Virus record (IMG/VR): IMGVR_UViG_3300008050_008852
Coordinates: 62,001 to 126,000 of that record
Reading direction: 5' to 3' (one strand)
Origin: a virus
Length of the DNA stretch: 64,000 nt
Shown: positions 12,396 to 64,000 of the stretch, piece after piece
Position numbering within the stretch: the stretch's first letter is position 1
Layout: each line of letters opens with the position of its first letter
Notes under the pieces: model-generated
The model's database searches: none
Told to the model about the DNA's origin: nothing
Seen by the model: the letters and a program-made list of their open reading frames with translations, nothing else
Made by a program: the position numbers and the translations under genes

Positions 12396-12958
12396 TGAAT
12401 AACGAATTTGTAATCGGCTTAGATGTGTCAACAAGTTGTACTGGCATTTCAATTTTAAGTCTAGATGGTAAAGTAATTAATATTTCGTACTGTAAACCAA
12501 AAGGTGATACGTTAGTAGAAAAAACTATTGACTTTAAGCACTTTGTTTGTAATTTTTTGAGTATAAATGGCTTTGGAAAACCTCAACATATATATATTGA
12601 ACAAAATCTTCAAAAATTCCGGCGTGGATTTTCGAGTGCTCAAGTTATTAATAAACTTGCAAGATTCAATGGTATGGTTAGCTATGTAATGTTTGAAAAT
12701 TTTAATGTGCAACCAGAATATATAAACGTCAATGAAGGTAGAAAAGCTTTGGGTATTAAGGTTCCTCGTGGATCAAACGCTAAAGAGGTTGTCTTTAAGT
12801 GGTGTAAGCACTCATATGCTAATTTAGAGTGGCCAACAAAAAAATTAAAGTCAGGTCCGAGAAAAGGGCTTGTAATCTTAGACACATGTTGTTATGATAT
12901 GGCAGATGCCATTGTAACTGCAGCCGCCGGGATTACGTTAGATGAACGAAATAGATGA
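12395..12958 (+). CDS. RuvC-like Holliday junction resolvase
   Basis: The product is 187 residues from the ATG at 12395; a TTG three bases earlier is less likely because it has no better ribosome-binding site. The RNase-H-like fold of RuvC resolvases is shown by the first strand IGLDVSTSCTGISIL with Asp10, the second acidic motif IYIEQ with Glu69, and the C-terminal DMADAIVTA with Asp168 and Asp171. These four acidic positions match the metal-binding set of RuvC. T4 itself resolves branched DNA with endonuclease VII (gp49), an unrelated fold, so this protein probably replaces that function before packaging. It overlaps the following primase gene by 17 bases. Confidence 0.75.
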   Translation: MNNEFVIGLDVSTSCTGISILSLDGKVINISYCKPKGDTLVEKTIDFKHFVCNFLSINGFGKPQHIYIEQNLQKFRRGFSSAQVINKLARFNGMVSYVMFENFNVQPEYINVNEGRKALGIKVPRGSNAKEVVFKWCKHSYANLEWPTKKLKSGPRKGLVILDTCCYDMADAIVTAAAGITLDERNR

Positions 12959-13934
12959 CGAAAAAAGAGTATTTGAGATTAGAGCCAACTTTTTACAGTC
13001 CATTTTTGGTACTGGTGTAAAATCACCGGAGCATTTCGCCGTTTCATGTCCAGCATGTTGTTCTGAAACAGATCGAAAACATAAAAAGAAGCTTTCTATA
13101 AGATTGGCTACTGGTATGCACCATTGTTGGATATGTGGACTAAAAGGTAAGACACTTAAGTATACAATTAAAAAGTATAAACCACAATATTTGTCAGAGT
13201 ACTGTAGAATATTTGAAGAAGAAGATTATAATTCGAAAATTAAGCCTCCAGCAGAAGATGAAGAAATAATAGCAGTACTTCCATCAGGATTTATACCATT
13301 AGCTACATCTATTCCTTTAGATCCGGATCATATAGCAACAATAAAGTACCTTTTTGCACGACAAATATCTAAGGATGATTTTTATAGATACCGCCTGGGT
13401 ACCTGCATAACCGGTAAGTTTTCACGAAAGGTTATTATGCCATCTTTTGATGTAGATGGCAATTTAAATTATTTTACAGCCAGATCAATTGATTCAGATG
13501 GTTCAAAAAAATACATTAATTCAAAGGTTAAGCGGAAAGACGTAATTTTTAACGAAATAAATATTAGATGGAACAAGCCTCTTACCCTTGTTGAAGGTCC
13601 ATTTGATTTAATGAAGTGTAATTGGAATGCAACTGCAATGCTTGGATCATACTTAGATGAAAGTTATCAACTGTTTCAAAAGATAGTTAAAAATTGTACT
13701 GAAGTGATATTAGCAATGGATTCAGACGCCAAAGATAAGTGTTCAAAGATAGCACAAAAATTAAAATCTTATGGAATAAATGTAAAATATGTAAATTTGG
13801 ATAAATTTAATGATGTAGGTGAGATGACAAAGCTTGAATTTGAAGAAATATTGCGAAACGCAAAACCATGGTCATCGGTGTCATTACTTAATTCAAAAAT
13901 TAGTAATATTAGATCAAGTTCAAATTTTTTTTAA
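12942..13934 (+). CDS. DNA primase, gp61/DnaG type
   Basis: The product is 330 residues. An N-terminal zinc ribbon has ligands Cys36, Cys39, Cys62 and Cys65 (CPAC and CWIC). A TOPRIM catalytic domain follows, with Glu218 in LTLVEGPFDL and the DxD pair Asp260/Asp262 in ILAMDSDA. This is the layout of T4 gp61 and DnaG-type primases, which make short RNA primers for lagging-strand synthesis, normally with a gp41-type helicase. No helicase domain is fused here and none lies in the window. The gene overlaps the RuvC-like gene by 17 bases and precedes the gp47-like gene by eight, forming one replication-recombination cluster. Confidence 0.85.
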   Translation: MNEIDDEKRVFEIRANFLQSIFGTGVKSPEHFAVSCPACCSETDRKHKKKLSIRLATGMHHCWICGLKGKTLKYTIKKYKPQYLSEYCRIFEEEDYNSKIKPPAEDEEIIAVLPSGFIPLATSIPLDPDHIATIKYLFARQISKDDFYRYRLGTCITGKFSRKVIMPSFDVDGNLNYFTARSIDSDGSKKYINSKVKRKDVIFNEINIRWNKPLTLVEGPFDLMKCNWNATAMLGSYLDESYQLFQKIVKNCTEVILAMDSDAKDKCSKIAQKLKSYGINVKYVNLDKFNDVGEMTKLEFEEILRNAKPWSSVSLLNSKISNIRSSSNFF

Positions 13935-33412: not shown

Positions 33413-33463
33413 ATGAAGTTTAATGAGATAATTACTATTGAAGAATTAAAAGGAGCTCAATAA
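33413..33463 (+). CDS. 16-codon leader ORF coupled to the first sheath gene
   Basis: An ATG with CGGAG ending eight bases before it opens a frame of 16 codons (MKFNEIITIEELKGAQ). Its TAA overlaps the sheath ATG as TAATG, and its codons 13-15 contain the sheath ribosome-binding site (AAAGGAG). This arrangement resembles a translational coupling leader. No homologue is known to me, and a frame of this size may be accidental. Confidence 0.4.
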   Translation: MKFNEIITIEELKGAQ

Positions 33464-39600: not shown

Positions 39601-39791
39601 AGGCTTTCGAAAAATCAGTAAGACCATTAGTTCAGCGAATGGTCAATGCTGGCGGGATATCTAAATTTAAGGTTCAGATAGACACATCAACCACATCACA
39701 GGTAGATATTGAAAATAATGTTGTAAGAGGAATGGTCTTTTTACAACCAACAAAATCAGATGAAATAATTCAAGTGGATTTTTCCACATAA
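36609..39791 (+). CDS. Tail sheath protein, gp18-type, copy 2 (divergent termini)
   Basis: The product is 1060 residues. It is clearly sheath-like: LGVIGTSPKGPAFIPTSL near the start, GGFDGFDMFS in the middle and MLQRVAVRRMILEIRRLVRE with FLFEQNKEST near the end. The N-terminal 20 residues differ from copies 1 and 3 (MPSPGTEWSRGSSLP). The FPWFAPAGF motif is replaced by AAPAGTKRGI, and the chain stops at QVDFST without the final 'VxTNxGxE' strand. It shares short identical DNA patches with copy 3. I infer a specialised sheath subunit, for example at an end of the polymer, because the terminal arms that knit neighbouring subunits are the parts altered. Confidence 0.85.
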   Translation: MPSPGTEWSRGSSLPAVQVVAGGEGLGVIGTSPKGPAFIPTSLKDISGFETKYGAISGASFGMLAAQAWLANSEGCTFMRLLGIGDGLKRLSADSTNSDGESIAPGAVKNAGFVVGAEMTGSNGMLGPNPYAVSGGPPGRTYFLGAFMSESKGSTYFSDAGIQPTTDGVPILRGVLFAPSGVIPSLSGCYTENTSTASLGPAAGNFLGSNDGGASIGSIYKDGDVSEKFVLLLNGHISTTEYPNEISASLNTTMTDDTGVDIYFANAFNTNPTKIREAGHYLYTYYDIDQSQAKVDGTGFVDPGSTKIDAYEKTLEDAIFLTTSSMDRNPNDTAGSLSIPNFENFCDRYQTAKTPVIFSQFIDRQQFDLFRFHALDDGTNIGSELKITIRNLVPQLTDDLYGTFDVVVRDLTNTDADFGAIASAEEFIGCNLDPSSEFYIARVIGDRHFYFNFDTDKTRQKYVRTGDYENKSAYIRVEVNPAVEKQILPTKVLPAGFRGPYHLVTAGSSILSNNQHPLSDGSVIPSSTSWAHKIVQSPIPYRVQLSNNDKTSDGITFLETKTVDENAKYWGIKTSKHKSIEEPNTDQNQNTSFISYLKYFPTFMTNRINPWAGDNNGVDDSDDTIYDSDRFNNAKFSLENILIHTTSYWIDGIKIDALGAAIPPIDMGIDDTQWAYARYRPDRTKIPLIDKTLKLKSGVRFFDFSKDLSITTPNTYAGFTVPLQGGFDGFDMFSIEKTNFSNLASYFEMQDENQGQKTGATTAAYLTALRILEEKSEAAIKLLAIPGIRLEAITNKALQVAEERFDAFYVMDIEEVDSEGNILLTGSHPGVTVAPDPTLTASRFKSRALDSSFTAVYFPDIQMRNPSVPSSVIFTPPSISAIRVYSRLSAAGNIAAPAGTKRGIIDTTDGTLGLAIQPKVIFDDTQKETIQTLYDAVINPIISSTDGPMIFGQRTTLSSADSMLQRVAVRRMILEIRRLVREVAKGFLFEQNKESTMKAFEKSVRPLVQRMVNAGGISKFKVQIDTSTTSQVDIENNVVRGMVFLQPTKSDEIIQVDFST

Positions 39792-39795
39792 ACAT

Positions 39796-39849
39796 ATGAC
39801 TAATAGTTTTTGTGATGAATACTTACTATTGTTAAAAGAGGAGCTATAA
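39796..39849 (+). CDS. 17-codon leader ORF before the third sheath gene
   Basis: An ATG five bases after the copy-2 stop opens 17 codons (MTNSFCDEYLLLLKEEL). Its last codons, GAG GAG CTA, form the ribosome-binding site of the next gene, and its TAA ends one base before that gene's ATG. It has no clear ribosome-binding site of its own, so translation would depend on re-initiation after the copy-2 stop. It is weaker than the two similar leaders at 7897 and 33413. Confidence 0.28.
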   Translation: MTNSFCDEYLLLLKEEL

Positions 39850-39850
39850 C

Positions 39851-42800
39851 ATGGCGGAACTTACATTTAAGAGTCCCGGTGTCAGTACAAAGGAAATTGA
39901 TTTAAGCGGACCAACATCAATTTCGCCAACAGGTGTACCTGCTGGTATTATTGGAACTGCAAACCAGGGTCCTGCTTTTGTGCCAGTCACTGTGGCCACA
40001 TTCGCAGATTTTATGACATACTTCGGTAAAACCGACGGCGAAAAATTCGGTCCACTTGCAATGTATGAGTGGATGAAGAATGCTAACGCAGGAACATATT
40101 TACGTGTTCTTGGTGTTGGTGATGGTAAAAAGCGATTATCCGCTGCCGGCACAAATGCCGATGGATCTACCATTCCAGCTGGTGGTGTTAAAAATGCCGG
40201 CTTTATAGTTGGCGATCGCCAGGTTAATATGGCAACCGGCTTAGTTGGTGTTAATAAATATGCATATAATGGTGCCGGCACAGGTGACTTAGGTAGAACA
40301 TATTTCCTCGGCGCATTTATGTCAGAGTCGGAAGGCTCTTCATATTTATCTGATGCTGGTATTCAATCTGCAGGCTCAGACAAATCATCAGCGATCCTTC
40401 GTGGTGTCTTAATGGCCGCCTCAGGTGTTATGCTTTCACTTTCAGGCAACTTTTGCCATGGCAATGCATCAACTGCATCACTTAATAGTTTACCGGATTT
40501 TGATCAAGGATCAACATCCGGTGGTTCTTCAATAGGCTCAATTTATAATAATAGTGGTGTAGGTCGTACTCACAATAAGTCGTATAATTTTGTTATGTTG
40601 TTAAATGGTCATAAAACTACAGAACAATATTCAAACACATTGACTGCGTCACTTAATCCAGCACGATCAAATTATATAACTGAGGTATTTAACACTGATC
40701 CTTCAAAGATCCAGAAAGCTGGCCACGTTTTATATTCACACTATGATGTATCCACTGCTCAGGCTGTTATTACTGGTTCTGGATTAATTCCGGCATGGGT
40801 TACCGCTTCTGCTGGAGCGTTAGACAGTCGGTATACTGAAGAAGCTGTATTCTTGGTTACGTCATCTCTTGATAGAAATGTAGGTTCTGAAACAATTCCA
40901 AACCTTGAAAACTTTAGTGATAGATTTCAACATGCTTTCTCACCTGCAGTTATTTCACAAAAGATTGGAGGCAAGAATAAAGACTTATTTACAGTTCATA
41001 TGCTTGATGCTGGAGCCTTTACAAATACAAATGTTAAGGTATCCATTGAAAACATTAGAAAGTCCAAGGTAGACGATGATTATGGTGTCTTTGACCTGTT
41101 GGTACGTAAGTTTTCAGATGGTGATGAGTCAGTTGCCATTGTAGAGACCGGCGAAACATTCAGAGGTCTTTCGCTTGATCCAAGTTCAGACAATTATATT
41201 GCTCGCCGAATTGGAACAATAAATAAGTTTTATGATTTTGATAAATTACCAGCATCACAGAAAATTGTTGTTGATGGTATTCATCCTAATATGTCACGAT
41301 ATATTAGAGTCGCGATGACAACTGAAGTTGATAATGGTGATATTACGAAAACTGCATTGCCAGTTGGTTTTAGAGGTCCGTATCACCTAGTAACATCTGG
41401 CTCAGGTATTACAATGAATTTCCAGCATCCACTCAACGAAGCCAATGACATGGCCGTCGGTGCTATATTTACAAGAACTGATGACTTAAATCCTGGTAAT
41501 GAAATTATTGAACCACCAATTCCTTATAGAGTGTCTATATCTGATGGCACTGGCGGAAAGAAAAAACCAAACAGTTCTTATTACTGGGGTCTTCAAACAA
41601 CTCAAGTTGATGTCGCAACGACAACGAATTCAAGTCGTATATTCAATAATGGAATCTCTGGATTTACAAAATATTATCCTAAGTTTGCCACTGGTCAACA
41701 GGCTATGTGGGTTGGAGCAAATAATGGTACAATAGATTCAGATGGTACTGTTTATGATTCTGATAATTTTAATAATAACTTATTTTCGCTTGAACAGATT
41801 CAGATTCATACAAAATCAACCGCGGATGTGGTCGATGGCAGAGAATGGGGTTTTGCAAAATATCGTAGAAATAATGAACTAGCTACCCGGGTATTCTTCC
41901 CAAAGAAGGATGGAACAACTGACACCGGCCGTTTCTTAAATGTTGCTAAAGACTTCGGTGATATCGCATCGTTTAAGTACTTTAAGTTTACAATGCCAGT
42001 TCAAGGCGGCTTTGACGGTGTCAATGTTTTTGACAAAGATAAAACAAAATTAGTAGACAATGCTGCTAAGCGTGAGATGAGTGATGAAAATCAAGGTGAG
42101 GTCGAAGGCCCCACTGTCGGCGCATATCTTAAGGCACTTCATATCATGGCTGAAAAGAGTGATGTTGATATCCAACTTTTGGCAGTACCAGGTATCCGAG
42201 AAACAAAAATTACCGACGACGCTATTGCTAAGACTGAAGGTCGTTTTGATGCATTATATATTATGGACATGGAAGAGCGTGATGTAAGTAATAATGTTGT
42301 AACATCATCTGCTCAAGAACTTAGTGTTACAAATACGATCGAAGATCTTAGAGGTAGAGCACTCGATACATCGTTTGCTGCAACATATTTCCCTGACACG
42401 ATTATTCCTGATCCTGTAACACAAACTAACGTACGTGTTCCACCATCTGTTAGCGTTCTTGGCGCTTTATCGTTAAATGATGCAGTTGCATTCCCATGGT
42501 TTGCTCCAGCTGGTTTTACTAGAGGCGCTTTGGCAAATGTCTTTGACACAACAGTTAACTTCAATAGGGCTAATCTTGACTCATTGTACGAAAGCGATAT
42601 TAACCCAATCACACAGTTTCCTGATAAGAAAGAACATGTTATCTTCGGACAGAAAACACTACAGGCTGCAGCATCATCACTTGATCGTGTAAATGTACGA
42701 CGCTTGCTTATCGATGTTCGTCGTAAAGTCCGTAATATTGCTGACACATTCATCTTTGAACCAAATAGAGCTGATACACTTGCAAGATTCTCAGCAGCTG

Positions 42801-42994
42801 TTAATCCAGTGTTAGCACAGGTTCAAGCACAACAAGGTGTTGAACGTTACCGTGTTATTATCGACACTACAACAACAACTCAAGCAGATATTGAAAATAA
42901 TACTGTTAGAGGAAAGATATTTATGCAACCAACCCGCGCGGTTGAGTTCATTGCTCTTGACTTTGTTGTTACAAATAATGGCACTGAAATCTAA
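39851..42994 (+). CDS. Tail sheath protein, gp18-type, copy 3
   Basis: The product is 1047 residues. It has the full sheath layout: TFKSPGVSTKEIDLSG ... PAGIIGTANQGPAFVPVTVA at the start, GGFDGVNVFDKDKT in the middle, FPWFAPAGFTRGAL near 880 and LDRVNVRRLLIDVRRKVRN ... VEFIALDFVVTNNGTEI at the end. It resembles copy 1 at both termini and copy 2 in the segment RTYFLGAFMSES (about 150-160), so the three genes are mosaics of each other. GAGGAG lies just before the ATG and a strong terminator follows. With an intact C-terminal arm and C-ending codons it may be the main sheath subunit. Confidence 0.9.
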   Translation: MAELTFKSPGVSTKEIDLSGPTSISPTGVPAGIIGTANQGPAFVPVTVATFADFMTYFGKTDGEKFGPLAMYEWMKNANAGTYLRVLGVGDGKKRLSAAGTNADGSTIPAGGVKNAGFIVGDRQVNMATGLVGVNKYAYNGAGTGDLGRTYFLGAFMSESEGSSYLSDAGIQSAGSDKSSAILRGVLMAASGVMLSLSGNFCHGNASTASLNSLPDFDQGSTSGGSSIGSIYNNSGVGRTHNKSYNFVMLLNGHKTTEQYSNTLTASLNPARSNYITEVFNTDPSKIQKAGHVLYSHYDVSTAQAVITGSGLIPAWVTASAGALDSRYTEEAVFLVTSSLDRNVGSETIPNLENFSDRFQHAFSPAVISQKIGGKNKDLFTVHMLDAGAFTNTNVKVSIENIRKSKVDDDYGVFDLLVRKFSDGDESVAIVETGETFRGLSLDPSSDNYIARRIGTINKFYDFDKLPASQKIVVDGIHPNMSRYIRVAMTTEVDNGDITKTALPVGFRGPYHLVTSGSGITMNFQHPLNEANDMAVGAIFTRTDDLNPGNEIIEPPIPYRVSISDGTGGKKKPNSSYYWGLQTTQVDVATTTNSSRIFNNGISGFTKYYPKFATGQQAMWVGANNGTIDSDGTVYDSDNFNNNLFSLEQIQIHTKSTADVVDGREWGFAKYRRNNELATRVFFPKKDGTTDTGRFLNVAKDFGDIASFKYFKFTMPVQGGFDGVNVFDKDKTKLVDNAAKREMSDENQGEVEGPTVGAYLKALHIMAEKSDVDIQLLAVPGIRETKITDDAIAKTEGRFDALYIMDMEERDVSNNVVTSSAQELSVTNTIEDLRGRALDTSFAATYFPDTIIPDPVTQTNVRVPPSVSVLGALSLNDAVAFPWFAPAGFTRGALANVFDTTVNFNRANLDSLYESDINPITQFPDKKEHVIFGQKTLQAAASSLDRVNVRRLLIDVRRKVRNIADTFIFEPNRADTLARFSAAVNPVLAQVQAQQGVERYRVIIDTTTTTQADIENNTVRGKIFMQPTRAVEFIALDFVVTNNGTEI

Positions 42995-43020: not shown

Positions 43021-43051
43021 GAGGGGACCTAAATGGTCCCCTCTATTTTTT
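43021..43051 (+). terminator. Rho-independent terminator after sheath copy 3
   Basis: A nine-base stem (GAGGGGACC with GGTCCCCTC), a five-base loop and TATTTTTTT close the sheath transcript. The right arm reaches the stop codon of the antisense endonuclease at 43043-43045. On the opposite strand the hairpin is not followed by a T-run, so it mainly serves the + strand. Confidence 0.88.
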
Positions 43052-44689
43052 TGTAAAGATTAAATTTGGGCAACCCCATATCTTAACAACACCTAAAGAT
43101 TCCGCCACTTCTTTTTCGGTCATATTATTTGCTTTATCGGCACGAATTTTAAAACGATCAATTCTATTTCGTCCATCAGTCCACCAAAAGCGATTAACTG
43201 TTCGTCCTTCAAAATTCCAGCCGGCTGTTGCATAGCCTGCCTTGGTCCCAAATCTTGTATCAACGTACGTAAGTAGTGACGTGAACCCACTCTCAACACA
43301 ATGTTGTAGTGCATACTTGGTGAGCCGACTGAGACCTCCAGGGCAGTGTGTATACATTTTTGTACAGAACCTTGCAATTTCCAATTGACCCTTATATTTT
43401 TTATGGAATGGCATTCTTAATGACATACATGATATCAATTCATTATTGTAAAATAAACCAAGGGCACATGTTGATTTTACATCACCGTCAATATGATTTT
43501 CGTTAAAAAAGTCCCTTCGTGTGGAAACACCAACTGGTTTTATTACACATTTTCTTGCGAAGATGGTTTGTTTAAATATGCCAAGCTTATGGGCAATCAT
43601 TGATTTACATATTTCTTCCTTCTCACGCCATTCATCGTCAAAGATATGAATTAACCCTACATTAGCATCCGCACACTTAATGGTCTTGTCAGAATGATAA
43701 TGTCTATCCTTATAAAGTTCGCTATGAAAATATAAACCATTAAATTCTATTCCAAAGTTTTTGTCTGGAATAAAAATATCTATTTCGTAAGGATTAATAA
43801 CTGTTCTATCACACATATTTGTTTCAAATCCAAGTGATCTAACAAACCGATCAACTTCAACTTGTTGTTTAGATCCTGCCGGATTACATTTATTACAACG
43901 ATTACTTAAAGCGCTTAATAAGCTTTTGGTTTGTAGATGTTTACAGGTTTTACATTCAAAAACTAGATTTTTATCTCTATCTCTGGTATAATCATCTAAA
44001 CCAGAAAGTAATTGAAGATCAGGGGCTCCAATAGATAAGCGTCGAACAATTTCTTCTTGTGTTAGCCGCTTTAGTGAATCAAGTCGTGATCTAATATTTT
44101 TTTCTTTTAATTTTCGTGAAACAGTATAACTCATTTCTAGAACTCGTGAATCAGTCTCCTTTGTCAGACCTTTCGCCCATGGTGTTAATTCACCTGAGGC
44201 ATATTGTTGTTTTAAGCGCTGTGAATTTACCATAAGTCGTGAATCAGTCTCCTTTGTTAACCCTTTACTCCATGAAGATCTTTCGCCAGAATCAAATTGT
44301 GCCTTAACAGTTTTACTTCTTTTAATTGCACCTTTTTTTATTGATTCATTGGTCTCCTTTGTCAATCCTTTTGACCACCCTACTTGTCCAATTAGTGAAT
44401 CTGAGCGCTTTTTACTAATTTTCCGAGCAGTTTCTTGATCGTACGCACTATAGATATTTCCATTATGTCCATCTATAAACTTATTAAAGCCTTTGTTCCA
44501 TGATTTGAAGTTTGTATGTAAGCCACAAGTATTACAGGCACATACTGGCCTATTGCCATTTAATTTTGTTATTGTATAGGCATCTTCTATATCATTAAAT
44601 TCATGTTCAGTAATAAGGTGTTCATTGAATTTTTTCTGCCTTCCACATGTAAAGTCACATGTTGGGCACTTAAATCTTGTTGATGTCAT
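43043..44689 (-). CDS. Free-standing homing endonuclease, Vsr-like EDxHD type
   Basis: The product is 548 residues and the only gene on the minus strand. It has a C2H2 finger (Cys8, Cys11, His24, His29), three 'W-S/A-KGLTKET' repeats (at 105, 140 and 161) of the NUMOD3-like DNA-binding kind, two CxxC knuckles (236/239, 255/258) and a PD-(D/E)XK Vsr-like core. The core residues are Asp294 in YEIDIFIPD, Glu305 in FGIEFNGLY and His312 in FHSE. A C-terminal GNAT-like segment follows. Such enzymes cut a site in related phages that lack them, and repair spreads the gene. It sits between sheath and tube genes, likely near its target. AGGA precedes its ATG on the minus strand. Confidence 0.82.
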   Translation of the reverse strand: MTSTRFKCPTCDFTCGRQKKFNEHLITEHEFNDIEDAYTITKLNGNRPVCACNTCGLHTNFKSWNKGFNKFIDGHNGNIYSAYDQETARKISKKRSDSLIGQVGWSKGLTKETNESIKKGAIKRSKTVKAQFDSGERSSWSKGLTKETDSRLMVNSQRLKQQYASGELTPWAKGLTKETDSRVLEMSYTVSRKLKEKNIRSRLDSLKRLTQEEIVRRLSIGAPDLQLLSGLDDYTRDRDKNLVFECKTCKHLQTKSLLSALSNRCNKCNPAGSKQQVEVDRFVRSLGFETNMCDRTVINPYEIDIFIPDKNFGIEFNGLYFHSELYKDRHYHSDKTIKCADANVGLIHIFDDEWREKEEICKSMIAHKLGIFKQTIFARKCVIKPVGVSTRRDFFNENHIDGDVKSTCALGLFYNNELISCMSLRMPFHKKYKGQLEIARFCTKMYTHCPGGLSRLTKYALQHCVESGFTSLLTYVDTRFGTKAGYATAGWNFEGRTVNRFWWTDGRNRIDRFKIRADKANNMTEKEVAESLGVVKIWGCPNLIFTKK

Positions 44690-49800: not shown

Positions 49801-51142
49801 TTGGAATATTATGAAAAATGTTGGGAATTGGAGCTCCGATACATTCGATACTGTTTTAGAGAAAATTGTGGATATCACAACAGCTATTAGGCATAAAATG
49901 ATGCCAGCGGTTATCGCAACAGCAGCAATGATTACTGGTGATCCACAAATAATTAAAGATAAATTAAGCATAATCGTCACACTTCTTCAATCATTTGCAC
50001 CAATTACTGACTTAATGGCTGCGGCACTTAGTATAAGATCAATGCGACCTGGTGATGTAGCATCGGCAATAGACAGCGTTTCTGGAGGTATGAGTGATAT
50101 AATTTTATCAATGTCGGATATGGTTCGTGACATTGTTCAAGTATCATCTGGTTTAACATCGGCACAAATAAGATCGGCAAAGGCAGTAGCCCCAATGATT
50201 GAAGCTGTGGCATCATTATTATCATCATTCAAGCCAGCCGAAGGGTTGTTTGAAGACTCTATATTAACTAACACGACAACACAATCTAAATCCGCCATGT
50301 TTGGCTTAATAGGTTCCGCGGAACGTACGGATTCTCGTACATATGTGACAGAAGAAGCTAGTGCCAAGACTGCAAACTATATAAGAACATTTGTTTCTTT
50401 AGTGGAACAGATAGGTGAACCGTTAAAAGATCTTGTAATAATTATGTCTGGTATTCGTATTCCAAATGCTGCCGGAGTTGGCCGAAATATGAAAGCAGTT
50501 TCAGCAGTAATGGAGGCTGTCGGCGGCGCCGGCGACGCGCTATCAAGTGTAATGTCATTAGGTGGCGATGCCTCCGACGGCTTGTCTTTTGTTGATATTC
50601 AACGAATTAAGTCAGACTTCGGTACATTGGCCGATTTATTTCTCGACAGCGCATCAGGAGATTCTATATTAAGTCAAGTAGGTCTAATTATTAACCCTTT
50701 AACTGAATTTGGCAGAACCTATGGCCGTAGAACTGCTAGCAGTCTTCAAGGTGTTGGTAGCATATTAGGTACAGATATACCTCAAGCCCTTCAAAGTATA
50801 AGTGATTTAGCAACAACCGCAAGTGTATTAGCTGCAGAAATACCTACATCCTGGTATAATACTCTTGTAGAACCAATTCAAGATATGATTACCCAGATTG
50901 GTCTTCTCGACGCGGAATTAGAGAGTATGGAAGCGATAAGCGTTAATGCACTTTTACATAAAGTAGGTTCGGCATTCGGTGTTCAAAATGAAACAATAAC
51001 TGTTACCAGAGGGAATGTTAATGTCGACATTAAATTAAATGTTACAATGCAGGCCAGTGAATTAAGTAGAGTACTAGTTGAGGGAAATTGGGTTGAGAAA
51101 GGCGAGGAATATTGTGCCAAGCTTAGAGAGCTTGATCGATAA
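46847..51142 (+). CDS. Tape measure protein
   Basis: The product is 1431 residues from a TTG start with AGAGG nine bases upstream. It is Ala/Gly/Met-rich and mostly helical. Five or six strongly hydrophobic segments lie between about 690 and 960 (for example VVLGAIAVGLALGVMGMV), as is usual for tape measure proteins, which set tail length and may enter the host membrane on injection. The N-terminal 100 residues are a charged coiled coil; the C-terminus is beta-rich (TVTRGNVNVDIKLNVTMQ). T4 gp29 is 590 residues; if length scales as usual, the tail should be about twice as long. Chaperone genes stand just upstream and baseplate genes downstream. Confidence 0.85.
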   Translation: MANSQQLDIEVAINNALKARVGLLDNQKSMIIDQIALAQEMCRALECKELDGYNERLAETRKGLLDASDATDKTTKSTQNMTQNLKKSKKSMFSFKGAAVGAAVAMKNAFGGAFKVIKSIGTLAKSLVTGAFNLVKGAMAAYNQMLDGIAQKGMEAANAGLGLRNAFEDVKEALGDLATGAGRDVVASYETLRSQSNNLAGTGIRLAKVFGRGPDGLAAALAFVSENVQGLGPQIDRFSGAMAEAATEVVLMGKALGFSGEDFANFGTMAGYAGESLQETLGRVSREIVTVSKRFGVNTKVMSKNLSTMMKMPGVFGSNTKEMLKTSVAAQKLGMSIEELTSVTGVFDDFESGAQAASDMAAEFGIVVDAASMMTAEPAEQMLMLKDAVAASGQSFEEMSRQERARMAELTGMDMSTMQKMMDPSNAFDGGALDAVESGVDAATAATLSQAAATEELSKMMKQLHESMEPMKTSGGFFGTFIEGITTGIMRSDEFREMTANVTNAFSVVFQSGKRVGDMLGELAGPGGPFYFIFEHLNGLEDTMKNLMPKIEAHFRTFVDDLMAGGDRAAAALPKLIEGIADSLFGSGGGGAFGAMMDGFHKLADLIVANIINSIPFFAEGLIKLFEGAVNLMTGGLPDLGVTIAEDGIMPMSQRAFAGLMDSGVINDLGNAFMCLMSTMWEKFGPTITDWAGKALAAIITMALLQSLPTILVGGLIKGAMAGFGGAIGKAMGGATENAPDGEGGTLNKSFGEKLASTAEGIKAAICALQDIGLKEIGYAAVVLGAIAVGLALGVMGMVKLALWIQESGVSMITLGVTTLVMIGMAAAIYGATMAAEAAARVEPSIMTKAVLGLIAAGLVFAGIAGIVTMVIKEFNGLEYNDDLPKIVEAAGSLTMTILKATAAIIGMGAILAIIMTLGSNPVTGTILAIALAASATIFAGVAALVYGLVSSFASFDAGAANRAVVAATAAGMITETVMFVLDSIWNIMKNVGNWSSDTFDTVLEKIVDITTAIRHKMMPAVIATAAMITGDPQIIKDKLSIIVTLLQSFAPITDLMAAALSIRSMRPGDVASAIDSVSGGMSDIILSMSDMVRDIVQVSSGLTSAQIRSAKAVAPMIEAVASLLSSFKPAEGLFEDSILTNTTTQSKSAMFGLIGSAERTDSRTYVTEEASAKTANYIRTFVSLVEQIGEPLKDLVIIMSGIRIPNAAGVGRNMKAVSAVMEAVGGAGDALSSVMSLGGDASDGLSFVDIQRIKSDFGTLADLFLDSASGDSILSQVGLIINPLTEFGRTYGRRTASSLQGVGSILGTDIPQALQSISDLATTASVLAAEIPTSWYNTLVEPIQDMITQIGLLDAELESMEAISVNALLHKVGSAFGVQNETITVTRGNVNVDIKLNVTMQASELSRVLVEGNWVEKGEEYCAKLRELDR

Positions 51143-51162
51143 TTTAAACAAATGGAAAAGAA

Positions 51163-51471
51163 ATGAGTGATACAGCAAAACTTATTGAAGCAATGAAAAT
51201 TATTAATAAGGCAAAAATTAATGATGAAGAAGCTTTACAAGAAAAAATATCGTTATTAAGAAATATCGATCTTTCGGCAGAAGCAATAAAACAAGATAAT
51301 GTTTCTGATTTAATAGAAAATTTAAGCGATGATGAAAAAGAAAAACTTGACAATGATATGGACGATTTAGCTTCCACATACTCAAGTATCTTAAATAGTG
51401 TTGCTGATTGTCTTGAAAATCCAGAACTCAGATTAAAAATAGTTGATGAGTTTAAGCGCCGATTGGGATAA
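51163..51471 (+). CDS. Small acidic helical protein
   Basis: The product is 102 residues, entirely helical and acidic (LIENLSDDEKEKLDNDMDDL). It starts 20 bases after the tape measure gene and ends 21 bases before a large baseplate gene. I recognise no family. Size and charge would suit an assembly factor or tail chaperone that does not remain in the virion, but this is only inferred from the place. Confidence 0.5.
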   Translation: MSDTAKLIEAMKIINKAKINDEEALQEKISLLRNIDLSAEAIKQDNVSDLIENLSDDEKEKLDNDMDDLASTYSSILNSVADCLENPELRLKIVDEFKRRLG

Positions 51472-51492
51472 TTAGTTACAGGAAGATAACTT

Positions 51493-54400
51493 ATGGCTGA
51501 CGAAGAAATCAATAATAAAAAAGCTACAGAGATTTATTATCCTGATGCTGATGGATCTGTCAAATGGTCAGATGATTTGCCTTCAGATGGTAGAAAAACT
51601 CTTGGTGAGTGGCTTAATAAATTAACTGAGACAAATATTGAGCCAGTGCCGCCGGCATCTGCCGACGCAACAATGGATATAGATAATAGTCAACATCCTT
51701 ATGTCGATCCTTCAAGCATTAAGACAGTATATAGTGAAACAGCTGCCGGCGTAGATATTAAGACAGATGTTGTTAAATTAGGGCCAGATGGCAACGCGTT
51801 AAAATTATTGCATGACGTTACCCCAACCGCCGCCACTGAAGGCACTTATCTTGATCCAACAACACAAGGTACAGGTACAACACTTGGTAGAACATCTGAA
51901 GTATTAACAAAGAATAGATTTTCTCCAGGTACATCATTTAAATCAACTGACGCTTGGGCAAACACCCAAAAACTGGATGGTTCTGGGCATGCCACCTCTA
52001 ACGCTTCTTCTTTTGGTGTTTATGATAAAAAATTCTCTGCTTTAGCCATGACTGAACTTCAAGATGTTGCTGAACAATTATTGTTAAATGCTGTTGGTGA
52101 TAAATCATCACCATTTGGTGACAAAGATGCAGCGACGTTCGATACAGGCGCCGGCGGAATATTAGGAACACAACTTGGTATAAGCCGGGATAGCTATAGT
52201 GCTGATACAGATTTTCGGCCAGCGCATGCTATACAAGCAGCCCGCGGCTCCGGAAGAACGGCTACCGATAATGTTAATGGCTCAATGCCAAAAAATGCCC
52301 CAGAAGAAGATTTAAGTGAAAACAAAGATTATAAACGTACATCCTTTGGTGTTTTAAACAATCATCTTGAACCATTTGCACCTGCCTTACCAACATCAAT
52401 GATATTACTTGCTGCCGTTGCTGCAATTACGGCTATTATAGCATCTATTGTTTTAGCGCTTATCATCGATGTCCTTGGTGCTGTTGTTTCGTTGATAAGT
52501 GGCAATGGTCTTGGTGGTGGTATGAGTCCAGATGCAACATATCAAATATTTGGTGATAGTAACGATCCGTCAAAATTATCAATGGGGGCTGCATTTGGCT
52601 CCAATGATCATTCTGATAGTGGTTTATGGGCATCAATTTATAGACTCTTTAATTTACCACCTTTAGAAGCAGAGTATGATAGCTTTTTCTATTTTACGGC
52701 CGCTGCAACTATTGGATCACTGGAATTTTTTATAGGTAATTCATTAAGTGGATCATTTATGATGCCACAAATACTTACAAATTCTGCAGGTTATTATGTT
52801 GTAGTTGTTAGAAACGCACTCCGGGATATGGAACAAATATCAGATGCTGCTAGTGATATGGGTGGAGGTGGAGTCACTGGTGCCATTGAAGGTTTCTTTG
52901 GTTTAATAGATGCCTTTACGTCAAGTGCTACATTTAAGTTTATGACAACAATGATTCAAATTGGTGATAGAATCATGACAGGCCCAAGTTTAAAACCGTC
53001 ACGTGATAATAATGGTCGTGTTATAGATGGAGTATTACGTGAAAATCAGTCCTCACCTACAATCATTACAGATCTTGGAAAAACAATTAGAATGAAAAGT
53101 GGCAATAGAAAATTATCATATGCCTTTTCGGTTCTACCACAAATATATTTACGTCCTACGGAAACCTTTGCCTATCATACATTAACACCTTCCGGAGATG
53201 CAAAAGATCCATTTATGGATTCAAATGATGCAGAAATCGCCGGCGTAGCACAATTCGCTAAACAAGGCGTCCAGTCAACAGATGTGATCATATCAAAAGG
53301 TCTTGCTTTTGGCGGCGGTGAGAAACCTCCTGCATTTTGGAATAGATTAACATATATTGAAAATGGTAGAATCCCAACACGGTTTAGACAAGAGCTTGAA
53401 AACGAATTAGACGCATATTATATGCCATTTTATTTTCATGATTTAAGAACAAACGAGATAATTCCTTTACCAGCATTTGTATCAGCAATTTCAGACTCTT
53501 TTTCACCTAAATATTCTGAATCAACGTCATTTGGTAGAATGGATGCTGTACAGATATATGGTGGAACAACTCGAAAAATTGGATTTTCATTTTATATGGT
53601 TTCTACAAGCCCAGAAGATTATTCTGCACTTTATTATGGAATTAATAAGCTTGTTTCGCTTGTTTATCCACAATGGGGAGGAGGAACTGAAATAACCAAT
53701 GCTGCCGGCGAGACCTTTCAAATTCCCTATAGTTATGTTCAAACCGCCTCTCCATTAATTCGTTTACGCTTAGGCGAATTATTTGCAAGTAATAGAACAC
53801 CCGAAACAGTTCGTAGGCTGTTCGGTGCAAACATGCCATCATTTAGTGTTCCTGATCCGAATAAATCCGACGAACCTGCCCCACCGACCAAAACATACGC
53901 GGAACCTGGCACTACACCATTCTTTCCCGCCCATTTCGAAGCGATTGTTTCAGCCGGTCGAAGTGCCGCGATAGACCCTACAGTGTCAACACTTATTTTA
54001 GCTACGCAAGTAGCAAATGCTGGTGGTGAAGCAGTGTTGTATAATGGCTGTGCCCCCACCTGTGGTGGCGGTGAGGGAGACACCGCCATTTCCATCTCCG
54101 GTGGAGCGCAAAACCTGGACGGCGAATCGATTTTATTGCCAACTGGGATAAATGTATTATTACCAGTCGGTATTACACTCCCAGCAGTGGAATGGAACCT
54201 TGCTAGTTATAAAAAATCTCGGTGGAGCAGTAGGGGTTCCAGAACGCTATCCGAGCCATGGTCTGCAAAAATAATAAATTATTATATGCGAGGAGCACCC
54301 CGAACAGCCCCAGGTGAGCCTCCAAAAGGTGGATATTTAAGAAATAAATTATACTACGTTGTTGAACTAAATGTTCCAGTCGTCCCGGAAGCAAAATGGC

Positions 54401-59277: not shown

Positions 59278-60378
59278 ATGTATTATATCGATAAAGAATT
59301 TTTAGGTTTAGAACCTTCAACAAAATGCCGCATGTTGTGCGAAGACGGAACTCTAAATCCAGGTACAGTCGGCGCTTTTTTACAGATTGCCCACGTCAAA
59401 AACAATTTCATTCCAAGCGAAATTATTAATACACTTAGCGTTTGCAACATTCCAATCCATAAGGCCGGCCTAAGTTATTTAGTTAGAAAACAAGAATTAA
59501 ACGATATTTTAGAACTTCACAAGCGTAATGTTGATATAGCGATTGGTGTAATGGGCGAATATATTAAAATATACTCAGACAATATTCATACATTAAATTC
59601 ATGTTCGCCATGTAGATTTTTAACTACAGTTGAAGATATTGATATAACACCTGAAGGGTTTGCCGATCCGGTAAAGTACAATACAGTAACAAAGACTGGT
59701 CGAATGAGTGTAGTGTCTGGGCCAAGTTTCTTAACGATGAAAAAAGATACAAAATCTAAAATTATTTCCAGATTTCAGAATGGAAAAATAATTGAAATAG
59801 ACTTTTCCGCGCTTGAACCAAGAACGGCTTTAGCTATAGCTGGTTCTGAATTTGCTGAATCTGACGATGTGTATGCCGTTGTTGGTGATATCCTTGGCAT
59901 CAATAGTAGGCCAGTTGCAAAGCAAGCCACTATATCATTTCTATATGGTGCAAACATTACAACGATATCGAAGCTTATAGATATGCCTCTCAAGTCACTT
60001 CGTCCAAAGTTGAATTATTTAAAACAAATATTTAAGTATGACGAAATAATTTCTAAAATTCATGCCGAATTAAAAGCAAATGCATATTTTAAAAATCATT
60101 TTGGTAGAGTAATTTTTCCAGATTCAAATCGCGATGGGGTACTATTTAATAACTTCTGCCAGTCATCCGCAGTGGACGTTGCATTAAGTGGTTTTGCTTC
60201 ATTGCTTAAACAAATCAAGGATAAAAATATGAATACTTGTAATGTATGTTTTATTCATGATGCTGTGTTGCTAGATGTTCCAGAAAGTGAAATTGAGGCA
60301 TTGAAATTGATGGCAACGAAATTACCTACACGCTTAGGGATTAATTTTCCTGTAAAGCTCAAAATTGTTGATAATTAA
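59278..60378 (+). CDS. Short family-A DNA polymerase
   Basis: The product is 366 residues, about 40% of Pol I. Palm and finger motifs are present in order: TKTGRMS (138-144), motif A IIEIDFSALEPR (Asp175, Glu180), motif B RPVAKQATISFLYGAN (Arg211, Lys215, Tyr223), the FGRVIFPD turn, the N-x-x-x-QSSAVDVA helix (291-302) and motif C CFIHDAV (His327, Asp328). The usual Glu after Asp in motif C is Ala329. No 3'-5' exonuclease and only a short N-terminal part replace the thumb. It may be the chain-making half of a split polymerase, as in Rhodothermus phage RM378, or a specialised enzyme. The ribosome-binding site is weak. Confidence 0.78.
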   Translation: MYYIDKEFLGLEPSTKCRMLCEDGTLNPGTVGAFLQIAHVKNNFIPSEIINTLSVCNIPIHKAGLSYLVRKQELNDILELHKRNVDIAIGVMGEYIKIYSDNIHTLNSCSPCRFLTTVEDIDITPEGFADPVKYNTVTKTGRMSVVSGPSFLTMKKDTKSKIISRFQNGKIIEIDFSALEPRTALAIAGSEFAESDDVYAVVGDILGINSRPVAKQATISFLYGANITTISKLIDMPLKSLRPKLNYLKQIFKYDEIISKIHAELKANAYFKNHFGRVIFPDSNRDGVLFNNFCQSSAVDVALSGFASLLKQIKDKNMNTCNVCFIHDAVLLDVPESEIEALKLMATKLPTRLGINFPVKLKIVDN

Positions 60379-60384
60379 TAACAA

Positions 60385-61119
60385 ATGATGAATGAACAAA
60401 AAATACGAAAATATATTCGCAAGATATTGTTAGAAACAGAACAGACTCGACGTCCTGGACGCGGTGGTTATAAAAAACAAATTCAACAGGCTGGTTCTCT
60501 TGCAAAATCAAATCCAGGCGAATTAATGAACCGATTAAAGATATCAGCTGTTAATGGCAAAGATGATATTAGAAAGTTGAATGAATTATTTAAACAGGCT
60601 GTAAGTAATACTCCTGAAATGTCGGCTGTATATTCTGAGCCTCAACCTCGTAAAGATAAAACAACAGGTGCTCAAGGGATTCGAATTCCCATTAAGGTTA
60701 TACCACCAAGAGATGCCCGGAAATATCTTGAACACACCCTGGTAGGTGCTCAAAACTCTCGAAGAGCATTATTCATAGATGACATTCAAGTTGAGATATT
60801 GGGTAACGATATTCTTCTATATTTTTCCAGTAAACCTTATAGCTGGGGTAAAGCACCTAAACCGCAAAAGTCAAGCTCACAATCAGCTACCGCAAAGCCT
60901 TCATCACCTCAACAAACACCTCCAGAAACGCAAAGTGAATCTGGCTCAGCCTCTAGCTCTAAAAAAGAAATCCTTGGAGAGCCAGATTTAAATCCAGATC
61001 GTGATGAAGAAGATGAAGATAATAAAGAGAGCAATATAGATTATGATCACGATAAAGATGAAGTTGATATAGCTCAGGCTCTTAGTGTTCTTGCTTTAGT
61101 TAAGGCAGCAAGAGGTTAG
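60385..61119 (+). CDS. Hypothetical protein with capsid-targeting-like leader
   Basis: The product is 244 residues. The first 17 form a basic amphipathic helix ending LLE (15-17), a possible gp21-type cleavage site, as in the small head genes at 23175 and 23689. A basic segment and a compact middle (YLEHTLVGAQNSRRALFIDD) follow, then a Ser/Pro/Gln linker and an acidic tail. T4 internal head proteins also carry such leaders and are encoded away from the head genes. I infer a protein packaged in the head and perhaps injected, though it could equally be a replication accessory, given its neighbours. Confidence 0.45.
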   Translation: MMNEQKIRKYIRKILLETEQTRRPGRGGYKKQIQQAGSLAKSNPGELMNRLKISAVNGKDDIRKLNELFKQAVSNTPEMSAVYSEPQPRKDKTTGAQGIRIPIKVIPPRDARKYLEHTLVGAQNSRRALFIDDIQVEILGNDILLYFSSKPYSWGKAPKPQKSSSQSATAKPSSPQQTPPETQSESGSASSSKKEILGEPDLNPDRDEEDEDNKESNIDYDHDKDEVDIAQALSVLALVKAARG

Positions 61120-62183: not shown

Positions 62184-63374
62184 ATGGCAAAAAAGAAGAA
62201 AGAAAAGAAAGACGACGATTTTACAAGTGAACTAATAATGCAGCTTAACAAGGAACAAGGTTCAAGAGTTGCTTATAATTTATCTTGTGATGCATCACCA
62301 ACCCATGTAAAGCGCTGGGTAAGTACAGGATCAAAATTACTTGATTATATTTGTTCAAATAGACGAAATGGTGGATTACCAGAAGGCCGTATTGTAGAAA
62401 TATTCGGACCACCTTCAATTGGAAAGTCACATATTGCTACTCAAATTGCTGCATCTACACAAAAGATGGGTGGTATTGTAGTTTATATTGACACTGAAAA
62501 CGCTACATCGGTTGAAAATTTGGCTATGTTGGGTGTTAATGTTTCAAAGCGTTTTGTTTATGTTGATACTCATTGTACCGAAGAAGTTTTTCAAATTGCT
62601 GAATCGACAATTTTAAAGGCAAAGAGTCTTAATAAGGATGTTCCAATTACAATTATCTGGGATTCTGTCGCGGCTTCTTCTCCAAAGGCTGAATTGGAAG
62701 GTGATTATGATAAAAATTCTATTGGCTTAAATGCTAGAGCAATTTCGAAAGGTATGAGAAAAATTACTGGTGTTATTGGTCAAACAAACGCATTGTTAGT
62801 TTGCTTAAACCAAACCCGTACAAAAATTGGCGTTATGTTTGGAGATCCAACTACAACAAGTGGTGGTGCCGCCATTCCGTTCCATTCATCTATTAGACTT
62901 AAACTTGGAGCTGGTCAACAAATTAAGGAAGGCGATGATGTTATAGGTATCAATGTATCTGCAAAAACAATTAAAAATAAGGTTGCTGCACCATTTAGAA
63001 CAGTTAGATTTCAGATTCATTTTGGTATTGGTATTAAGGAACATGAAGAAATATTTGATATTTTACGTAAACATGGTGCTGAGACTATTGGTAAAAACGA
63101 AGTTGAAGTATCTGGAACTGGTGCTTGGAAAACGCTAACTATAACCGATATTAAAACTGGTGAAATTAAGATTGAGAAGAAATTTCATAAAGGTTCATTT
63201 GACGAGATTTTATTAGATCCTGAATATTCATCATATACTGACGATTTAATTGAAAAGGCAATGGTCAAAATACTTAATAGTGATTCAGAAATTGACTTTG
63301 ATTCAGAATCATATTCAGAGGTTTCTGCTCTTGCAGATGATTTAGAATTTCAAGAAGGTCTTGATTTAGGGTGA
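62184..63374 (+). CDS. UvsX/RecA-type recombinase
   Basis: The product is 396 residues (T4 UvsX is 391). Motifs are the lead-in GGLPEGRIVEIFG, Walker A GPPSIGKS (75-82), YIDTENA (catalytic Glu region), Walker B TIIWDSVAA and the NQTRTKIG-MFGDPTTTSGG loops L1/L2. It forms helical filaments on single-stranded DNA and drives strand invasion, which starts most T4-type replication forks and repairs breaks together with gp46/47 and gp32. The N-terminus is Lys-rich and the C-terminus acidic. GAGGG lies about ten bases before the ATG. Its TGA overlaps the GTG of the next gene. Confidence 0.9.
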   Translation: MAKKKKEKKDDDFTSELIMQLNKEQGSRVAYNLSCDASPTHVKRWVSTGSKLLDYICSNRRNGGLPEGRIVEIFGPPSIGKSHIATQIAASTQKMGGIVVYIDTENATSVENLAMLGVNVSKRFVYVDTHCTEEVFQIAESTILKAKSLNKDVPITIIWDSVAASSPKAELEGDYDKNSIGLNARAISKGMRKITGVIGQTNALLVCLNQTRTKIGVMFGDPTTTSGGAAIPFHSSIRLKLGAGQQIKEGDDVIGINVSAKTIKNKVAAPFRTVRFQIHFGIGIKEHEEIFDILRKHGAETIGKNEVEVSGTGAWKTLTITDIKTGEIKIEKKFHKGSFDEILLDPEYSSYTDDLIEKAMVKILNSDSEIDFDSESYSEVSALADDLEFQEGLDLG

Positions 63375-64000
63375 CAGACTATTTAATAATTGATGGCATG
63401 AATGTTTTCATGCGTCACTTTGCAGCAAATCCTGCAATTAGTGAGAATGGTGAAAGTATTGGTGGCGTAGTTGGGTTTTTAAGAGGTTTAAAAAATTTAA
63501 TCAATGGATTATATCCAAAAGAGGTAATAGTAGTTTGGGAAGGCGGCGGCAGCCCACGAAGGCGCGCCATTGACCCTAATTACAAACAATCCCGACGGCC
63601 TGTGAAATTAAATAGATTTTATGAAGAAATTCCAACTACAGCAAGTGGTAGAAATCAACAAATAAATATGTTGATTCAGCTATTAAGATTTGGTCCAATT
63701 AAGCAATTATACATTTCTGACTGTGAAGCAGATGATGTAATTGGATATTTGACAAATTTTGAATTGCGTAACAAGAAAATAGTAATAGCGTCATCAGATC
63801 ATGATTATTATCAACTTGTTAATGACAATATAACAATTTGGTCACCTGGGCAGAAAAAAAATATTACACAGAAAGATATTTTTGAAAAATTTAATATACG
63901 TCCAGAAAATTTTTGTGCCGTTAGGTGTTTTTGCGGAGACAAGTCAGATGGTGTCCCTGGTGCACCAGGAGTTGGATTTAAAAGTATTACAAAACGCTTT
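63371..64000 (+). CDS. FEN-type 5'-3' exonuclease / RNase H (3' partial)
   Basis: A GTG overlapping the UvsX stop (GTGA) opens a frame that runs 210 codons to the right edge without a stop. The protein has the 5'-nuclease layout: DYLIIDGMNVFMRHF at the start, CEADDVIGYL near 120, ASSDHDYYQL near 143 and the helix-hairpin-helix FCGDKSDGVPGAPGVGFKSI at the visible end. These Asp clusters bind the catalytic metals in T4 RNase H, T5 exonuclease and the Pol I 5' domain. It would remove RNA primers and flaps. Since the family-A polymerase nearby lacks this domain, the two may act as separate halves of a Pol I-like set. Confidence 0.85.
   Translation, partial: MTDYLIIDGMNVFMRHFAANPAISENGESIGGVVGFLRGLKNLINGLYPKEVIVVWEGGGSPRRRAIDPNYKQSRRPVKLNRFYEEIPTTASGRNQQINMLIQLLRFGPIKQLYISDCEADDVIGYLTNFELRNKKIVIASSDHDYYQLVNDNITIWSPGQKKNITQKDIFEKFNIRPENFCAVRCFCGDKSDGVPGAPGVGFKSITKRF

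What the first reader, a model, noticed from the sequence alone, without database searches (positions are those of the whole stretch)
59278..60378. A 366-residue family-A DNA polymerase with HDA instead of HDE
T4-like phages normally use a family-B polymerase. This gene keeps palm and finger motifs of family A in a very small chain, with no exonuclease domain and a shortened thumb. Motif C has Asp but the next Glu is Ala. A separate FEN-type gene lies nearby. It may be a split replicase, as in phage RM378, or a new small polymerase type.
Basis: partly seen in the sequence, partly recalled or inferred. Interest (0 to 1): 0.75.

Follow-up and report, generated by a model that had tools for sequence, protein, structure and literature searches.

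The report
Small helper DNA polymerase, divPolA1
This ocean virus of bacteria carries a cut-down, probably still working relative of bacterial DNA polymerase I that lacks the proofreading part; it belongs to a kind already described in 2024 and most likely helps a larger copying enzyme rather than copying the genome alone.

Summary
In detail: window 59278-60378 (+) encodes a 366-aa family-A polymerase (Pfam DNA_pol_A 6.9e-11) with fingers and palm, no exonuclease domain, a reduced thumb region, and motif C HDA. RM378's split polymerase is family B, so that analogy fails. The gene is not its clade's only polymerase: relatives carry a full-size family-C DnaE about 14-36 kb downstream of it (31 of 85 records examined; 10 of 10 that reach 35 kb or more beyond uvsX), while family B is absent (0 of 87). 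The window's contig ends 269 bases after the helicase, so its own dnaE was not seen. The protein is not a decayed fragment: across 99 distinct relatives the catalytic residues are invariant and dN/dS is 0.07-0.25. HDA is not odd: 97 of 99 lack the Glu, and in a characterised phage PolA a Ser-to-Ala change there keeps 76% activity. The kind was published as divPolA1 (Yutin et al. 2024): divergent PolA, thumb truncated, exonuclease lost, beside a regular polymerase, upstream of SSB-recombinase-FEN-helicase. Best reading: with the neighbouring FEN it works as a split Pol I for gap filling and primer replacement. New member of a known kind.

The parts
59278..60378 (+). small exonuclease-less family-A DNA polymerase, 366 aa (divPolA1 kind)
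   Evidence: Pfam DNA_pol_A 6.9e-11; residue map; model
59800..59823 (+). motif A, DFSALEPR (aa 175-182): catalytic Asp and steric-gate Glu kept
59908..59949 (+). motif B / O helix (aa 211-224): R754, K758, Y766 equivalents kept, F762 replaced by Ile
60256..60264 (+). motif C, HDA (aa 327-329)
   Evidence: Ala at this site in 87 of 99 relatives
60385..61119 (+). 244-aa gene of unknown function between polymerase and SSB; among the 80 UvsX loci similar only in L085 and L009
61267..62067 (+). gp32-like single-strand DNA-binding protein
   Evidence: Pfam gp32 9.5e-12
62184..63374 (+). UvsX/RecA-like recombinase
   Evidence: Pfam RecA 4.2e-63, PHROG 97
63371..64000 (+). FEN-type 5'-3' exonuclease, 315 aa, cut by the window end (contig 125371-126318); DnaB/gp41-like helicase follows at contig 126330-127739
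   Evidence: Pfam 5_3_exonuc_N 3.6e-29; DnaB_C 7e-22
12942..13934 (+). DnaG-like primase
   Evidence: Toprim_2 8.7e-5, DNAG_N 1.1e-4; similar to the annotated immuto primase, 8e-33

Best explanation
The gene encodes a divPolA1-type polymerase: a family-A palm and fingers with a reduced thumb region and no proofreading domain. Shown: the fold by prediction, conservation of every catalytic residue in relatives, purifying selection in relatives, the kept neighbourhood polA - gp32 - uvsX - FEN - helicase, and a full-size DnaE in the relatives whose contigs reach far enough. Inferred: it is an active, non-proofreading DNA polymerase that, with the separately encoded FEN, does for the phage what Pol I (FEN plus polymerase in one chain) does in bacteria: fill gaps and replace RNA primers on the lagging strand and at recombination intermediates made by UvsX, while DnaE makes the bulk of the DNA. 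Also inferred: the window's phage has a dnaE in the part missing from its contig.
For: Family A. 99 distinct relatives: R668, D705, E710, R754, K758, Q849 and D882 equivalents in 99 of 99. dN/dS 0.07-0.25 in the 16 of 19 listed pairs with finite dS, several near saturation. HDA competent by analogy: in Tt72 phage PolA, with Ser at the E883 site, S616A keeps 76% activity whereas D384A and D615A keep 4% (passages of PMC9324360). Gene order kept; polA in 29 of the 29 tabled records with at least 4.9 kb upstream of uvsX; FEN in 80 of 80 loci. DnaE: 12 of 49 (the window's contig included and negative), 7 of 18, 12 of 18; 10 of 10 records reaching 35 kb or more downstream of uvsX; three catalytic Asp kept in the 3 aligned. 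Small PolA and dnaE together in 24 records (with 45, 116 with 118, 125 with 126), among them the window's nearest long relatives G071 (293 kb), G072, G076 and G078. PolB 0 of 1, 0 of 50, 0 of 18 and 0 of 18. Pol I role and stand-alone FENs in bacteria without Pol I: passages of PMC12926913. Published kind: section 13 of PMC11348598.
Against: I saw no activity measurement for any member. The window's own contig shows no dnaE; it ends 269 bases after the helicase. Two records with 27-28 kb downstream of uvsX (L066, L041) show no dnaE, and neither does the 206-kb record G066, though that one also gives no hit for uvsX, FEN, helicase or terL. The regular polymerase changes family among these phages (PolA in immuto, PolB in Mel-JY01, DnaE here) while divPolA1 stays, which could mean that divPolA1 has the more central role. 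The gap-filling role is inference from gene company alone.
Confidence: 0.62

Rival explanations
1. divPolA1 is the main or an essential replisome polymerase (for example lagging-strand or primer-extending), and the exchangeable DnaE, PolB or large PolA is the accessory one.
For: divPolA1 is the constant member of the SSB-recombinase-FEN-helicase block in three groups whose other polymerase differs; Yutin et al. call the functionality of the regular polymerases 'less obvious' because of their mixed neighbourhoods.
Against: No exonuclease domain and a reduced thumb fit poorly with accurate copying of large genomes; DnaE keeps its catalytic Asp residues and a PHP domain.
Confidence: 0.17
2. A split replicase as in phage RM378: this is the polymerase half and a separate exonuclease is its partner.
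For: The chain lacks an exonuclease; L050 has a DnaQ-like gene right after polA.
Against: RM378's halves are family B; DnaQ-like genes occur in only 4 of 49 records and none in the window's contig; a full-size DnaE exists in relatives.
Confidence: 0.05
3. A catalytically dead PolA kept for a structural or regulatory role, the HDA motif marking the loss.
For: Motif C Glu replaced in 97 of 99 members.
Against: Both metal-binding Asp and the steric-gate Glu are invariant in 99 of 99; full-size phage PolAs also lack the Glu; the analogous S616A mutant of Tt72 pol is 76% active.
Confidence: 0.08
4. A specialised polymerase for lesion bypass or end joining, since Pol theta is among the best structural matches.
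For: Pol theta tops the list at Z 22.8, tied with Bst and T7; no proofreading domain.
Against: The Z scores are tied within 1; Pol theta's own insertions were not looked for; gene company points to replication and recombination.
Confidence: 0.08

Closest known systems
divPolA1 (Yutin et al. 2024, Virol J 21:200, PMC11348598; section 13 read)
   Same: Divergent PolA, palm residues kept, thumb truncated, exonuclease lost, upstream of conserved replication genes, beside a regular polymerase of family A, B or C; in phage immuto and relatives incl. three GOV marine bins.
   Different: The window's protein (366 aa) is shorter than immuto gp001 (441 aa); it keeps the steric-gate Glu and has HDA where immuto, Mel-JY01 and LR756508 have His and YDA. 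The published GOV members could not be fetched, so their letters were not compared.
Bacterial DNA polymerase I (Klenow part) plus its FEN domain
   Same: Same polymerase fold and active site; a FEN is encoded four genes downstream.
   Different: Separate chains; no 3'-5' exonuclease domain; E883 replaced by Ala and F762 by Ile.
HMO-2011-type, Tt72 and BM15 phage PolAs
   Same: Family A without the motif C Glu (Ser there; Tt72 from PMC9324360, the others).
   Different: Full-size proteins of 678-1038 aa, annotated as the phage DNA polymerase.
Rhodothermus phage RM378 split polymerase
   Same: Polymerase chain without its exonuclease domain.
   Different: Family B in both pieces.

Membership tests
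divPolA1 | family-A palm and fingers with main catalytic residues conserved | tested here: met
   (99 of 99 for D705, E710, R754, K758, D882 equivalents)
divPolA1 | 3'-5' exonuclease domain lost or inactivated | tested here: met
   no exonuclease family in the Pfam scan; only about 60 poorly modelled residues precede the thumb region; longer relative L063 has four N-terminal strands and its alignment starts at Taq residue 303, which I read as a remnant
divPolA1 | truncated thumb | tested here: met
   by length and modelled helices (two long helices, aa 71-106) between residue 60 and R142; no superposition of the thumb was made
divPolA1 | gene lies upstream of a conserved block of replication genes | tested here: met
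   gp32, UvsX, FEN, helicase follow in the window's contig and in relatives; same order in immuto
divPolA1 | a regular polymerase (A, B or C) in the same genome: relatives | tested here: met
   small PolA and dnaE in 24 records (with 45, 116 with 118, 125 with 126)
divPolA1 | a regular polymerase in the same genome: the window's own phage | tested here: inconclusive
   none in the 128-kb contig, which ends just after the helicase, before the place of dnaE in relatives
divPolA1 | closer sequence kinship to named members than to regular PolAs | tested here: inconclusive
   hhalign to immuto/Mel/LR756508 97.2%, E 4.7e-11, but to regular PolAs 99.7%, E 2.6e-25; joint clade support only 83/76; MK892584, LR796625, MK892766 not held
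RM378-type split polymerase | family-B polymerase and family-B exonuclease as two genes | tested here: not met
   window protein is family A; PolB absent from the contig
full-size Pol I | 3'-5' exonuclease and FEN domains in the chain | tested here: not met
divPolA2 (barbaviruses) | variable gene neighbourhood and PolB in the genome | tested here: not met
   neighbourhood is constant and PolB absent
divPolA2 (barbaviruses) | N-terminal globular domain in place of the thumb | not tested
   no divPolA2 protein was fetched or compared
active DNA polymerase | primer extension with dNTPs | not testable with these tools
   needs purified protein

The most novel reading that the evidence does not exclude
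divPolA1 is the old, fixed polymerase of this phage lineage's replisome, tied to SSB, recombinase, FEN and helicase, and the large polymerase (A, B or C) has been swapped around it; a proofreading-free minimal PolA would then carry out an essential step such as extending primers or making the lagging strand, with DnaE restricted to the leading strand. The immuto/Mel branch, with His at the steric gate, could even use ribonucleotides.
Probability: 0.14. Interest if true: 0.65.

Novelty: new member of a known kind. Interest (0 to 1): 0.3.

Why it matters
It corrects three leads: the missing motif C Glu is ordinary, RM378 is no precedent, and the phage clade has a family-C replicase. It widens divPolA1 from the 14 published genomes to a family with 200 matching stretches in one viral scan and ties it to DnaE in the ocean clade, so the question why a phage keeps a tiny proofreading-free PolA beside a full replicase becomes testable on a cultured phage (immuto).

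Tried and rejected
A scan of viral contigs with P0001 alone found no relative; the family was reached through the neighbouring UvsX and then by alignment. A PolB elsewhere: not found. A partner DnaQ: sporadic; PF01612 was not searched across records. Small PolA as the only polymerase: seemed so, dropped once dnaE was found. G066 (206 kb, no dnaE, PolB or second PolA) looked like a counterexample, but it also gives no hit for uvsX, FEN, helicase or terL, so it is incomplete or rearranged. G057 has no dnaE in the part read and has FEN and helicase far from polA: unexplained. G060 has only part of a dnaE at its contig end and is not counted among the 24.

Rows dropped: of 36 loci with a homologue, alignment A1 uses 27 plus P0001 (near-identical copies L072, L036, L062, L022, L024, L049, the 5'-open L015 and the partial L029, L013 left out); the map and tree use 28 of the 36 plus P0001. 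tables 49 of the 50 records (L071 left out by oversight). Searches cover 50 of the 80 loci, one search covers 48 of them plus the window's contig, searches cover 18 of the 80 loci 18 of the 80 loci. One search counts 99 distinct sequences, one of them (L194) incomplete.

Papers: PMC11348598, section 13 and passages; PMC9324360 and PMC12926913, passages only; all others seen in search listings only. 'divPolA1' is in 2 held papers, the article and its preprint; no activity test of it turned up in the listings, and the library misses most subscription journals.

Full report
Observation. Window 59278-60378 (+) is an open frame of 366 codons plus stop. It matches Pfam DNA_pol_A at 6.9e-11 over residues 135-350 and PHROG 17 at 4.4e-19. 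Aligned to E. coli Pol I, fetched and checked by letter, it keeps R668, D705, E710, R754, K758, Y766, N845, Q849, H881 and D882, and has Ile for F762 and Ala for E883. No exonuclease family matches. An AlphaFold2 model from 28 aligned sequences has mean pLDDT 86.3 with residues 1-60 poorly defined; the 50 best Foldseek rows in the PDB are family-A polymerases (best E 3e-13) and VIA-align gives Z 22.8 for Pol theta and 22.6 for Bst and T7, which are ties.

Genome context. The window is bases 62001-126000 of a 128,008-base linear IMG/VR contig. The gene sits between a 1334-aa protein and a block of a 244-aa unknown, gp32 SSB, UvsX, FEN and DnaB/gp41 helicase. The terminase is about 40% identical to that of Flavobacterium phage immuto and Microcystis phage Mel-JY01. 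There is no family-B polymerase and no DnaE in the contig; the contig stops 269 bases after the helicase.

Relatives. A scan with UvsX gave 80 loci of 72-96% identity. 36 of the 80 hold a homologue of the polymerase (27-38% identity), and of the 49 records tabled, all 29 with at least 4.9 kb upstream of uvsX have it. Gene order is kept. An alignment-based scan gave 200 matching stretches. Among 99 distinct sequences the catalytic residues are invariant (R668, D705, E710, R754, K758, Q849, D882: 99 of 99), and the E883 site is Ala in 87, Ser 6, Cys 2, Gly 2, Glu 2. dN/dS for the closer pairs is 0.07-0.25, with several dS values near saturation. This is a maintained protein, not a decaying fragment.

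HDA. Of the full-size PolAs aligned, HMO-2011, HTVC033P and BM15 have HDS and the large immuto PolA HDQ. In Thermus phage Tt72 polymerase, which has Ser there, changing it to Ala leaves 76% activity, while loss of either metal-binding Asp leaves 4% (PMC9324360, passages). So HDA by itself does not predict loss of activity.

Another polymerase. Of four large relatives read through, three carry an 1188-1195-aa protein; the one scanned has PHP, DNA_pol3_alpha, finger and HHH domains and matches PHROG 405 at 7e-231. All three keep the three catalytic Asp of E. coli DnaE. DnaE is found in 12 of 49 records, 7 of 18 and 12 of 18; in 10 of 10 tabled records that extend 35 kb or more beyond uvsX, though not in two that extend 27-28 kb. 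PolB is found in 0 of 87 records. Records with both the small PolA and DnaE number 24: 8, 7 and 9; in three of the 24 (G058, G083, G086) dnaE is in pieces, and in one (G073) polA is cut by the contig end. The window's helicase lies in a 17-row starred clade, and the nearest long relatives G071, G072, G073, G076 and G078 all have DnaE. One record with a short polymerase frame (G085, 355 aa) also has DnaE. That the window's phage has dnaE is therefore likely but not seen.

Literature. Yutin et al. 2024 (PMC11348598; section 13 read) define divPolA1 in 14 phages, immuto and three marine GOV bins among them: a divergent PolA beside a regular A, B or C polymerase, upstream of conserved replication genes, palm intact, thumb truncated, exonuclease inactivated. 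The features I could test fit the window's gene, save that its own second polymerase lies beyond reach and that close kinship by sequence was not firm. Immuto gp001 (441 aa) sits in the same gene order and immuto has a second, 777-aa PolA. Mel-JY01, which has PolB and clamp-loader genes, holds an unannotated member at 50397-51623, and LR756508 another at 240919-242235. The link between the ocean group and the immuto/Mel/LR756508 group has joint support of only 83/76, and the ocean profile scores higher against regular PolAs than against the three; shared gene order is the stronger argument. The published GOV member tried and two others were not held. The paper's text holds no mention of HDE, glutamate or RM378.

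RM378. Its exonuclease gene matches PF03104 and its polymerase gene PF00136, both family B. It is not a precedent for a split family-A enzyme.

Mechanism. Bacterial Pol I combines FEN and polymerase to replace primers and fill gaps; bacteria without it nearly always keep a stand-alone FEN (PMC12926913, passages). Here the two parts are separate genes close together, found with SSB, recombinase and helicase, while DnaE supplies a full replicase. The most economical reading is a split, proofreading-free Pol I equivalent. The role is inferred; activity is predicted, not shown. The rival that divPolA1 is the more central enzyme rests on its constancy while the other polymerase changes family.

Verdict. 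Observation confirmed; interpretation partly supported; new member of a known kind; interest 0.3.

Noticed in passing
L129:1-1326, L132:20397-21623, L156:420-1760: The divPolA1 proteins of immuto and Mel-JY01 have His at the steric-gate Glu site, Tyr for R754 and YDA for HDE, and LR756508 looks the same in the alignment, unlike the ocean group; they may differ in substrate choice or activity.
   Followed up: partly
G058, G083, G086 (dnaE): The dnaE match is in two or three separate pieces, which could mean introns, inteins, split genes or assembly errors.
   Followed up: no
window 33463-42994: Three consecutive tail-sheath-like genes of 1047-1060 aa; Pfam sheath C-terminal domain in all three, below the curated cut-off in the middle one. 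G032 has two such genes.
   Followed up: partly
window 43043-44689 (-): A 548-aa minus-strand gene with a zinc-finger-like start, lying between sheath and tube genes; no Pfam match.
   Followed up: partly
contig G000 8151-30764 (outside the window): A long run of genes whose translations look like sugar-nucleotide, glycosyl- and methyltransferase enzymes (judged by eye).
   Followed up: no
L050:5776-6378: A DnaQ-like exonuclease gene (RNase_T 6.3e-13) directly after polA, where several other relatives have a 190-200-aa gene with weak similarity to a metal-dependent phosphohydrolase.
   Followed up: partly
PP395634 55792-56832 (Mel-JY01): Annotated 'DNA polymerase I', but it matches the FEN gene of this clade, while the PolA relative at 50397-51623 is annotated as hypothetical.
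   Followed up: yes
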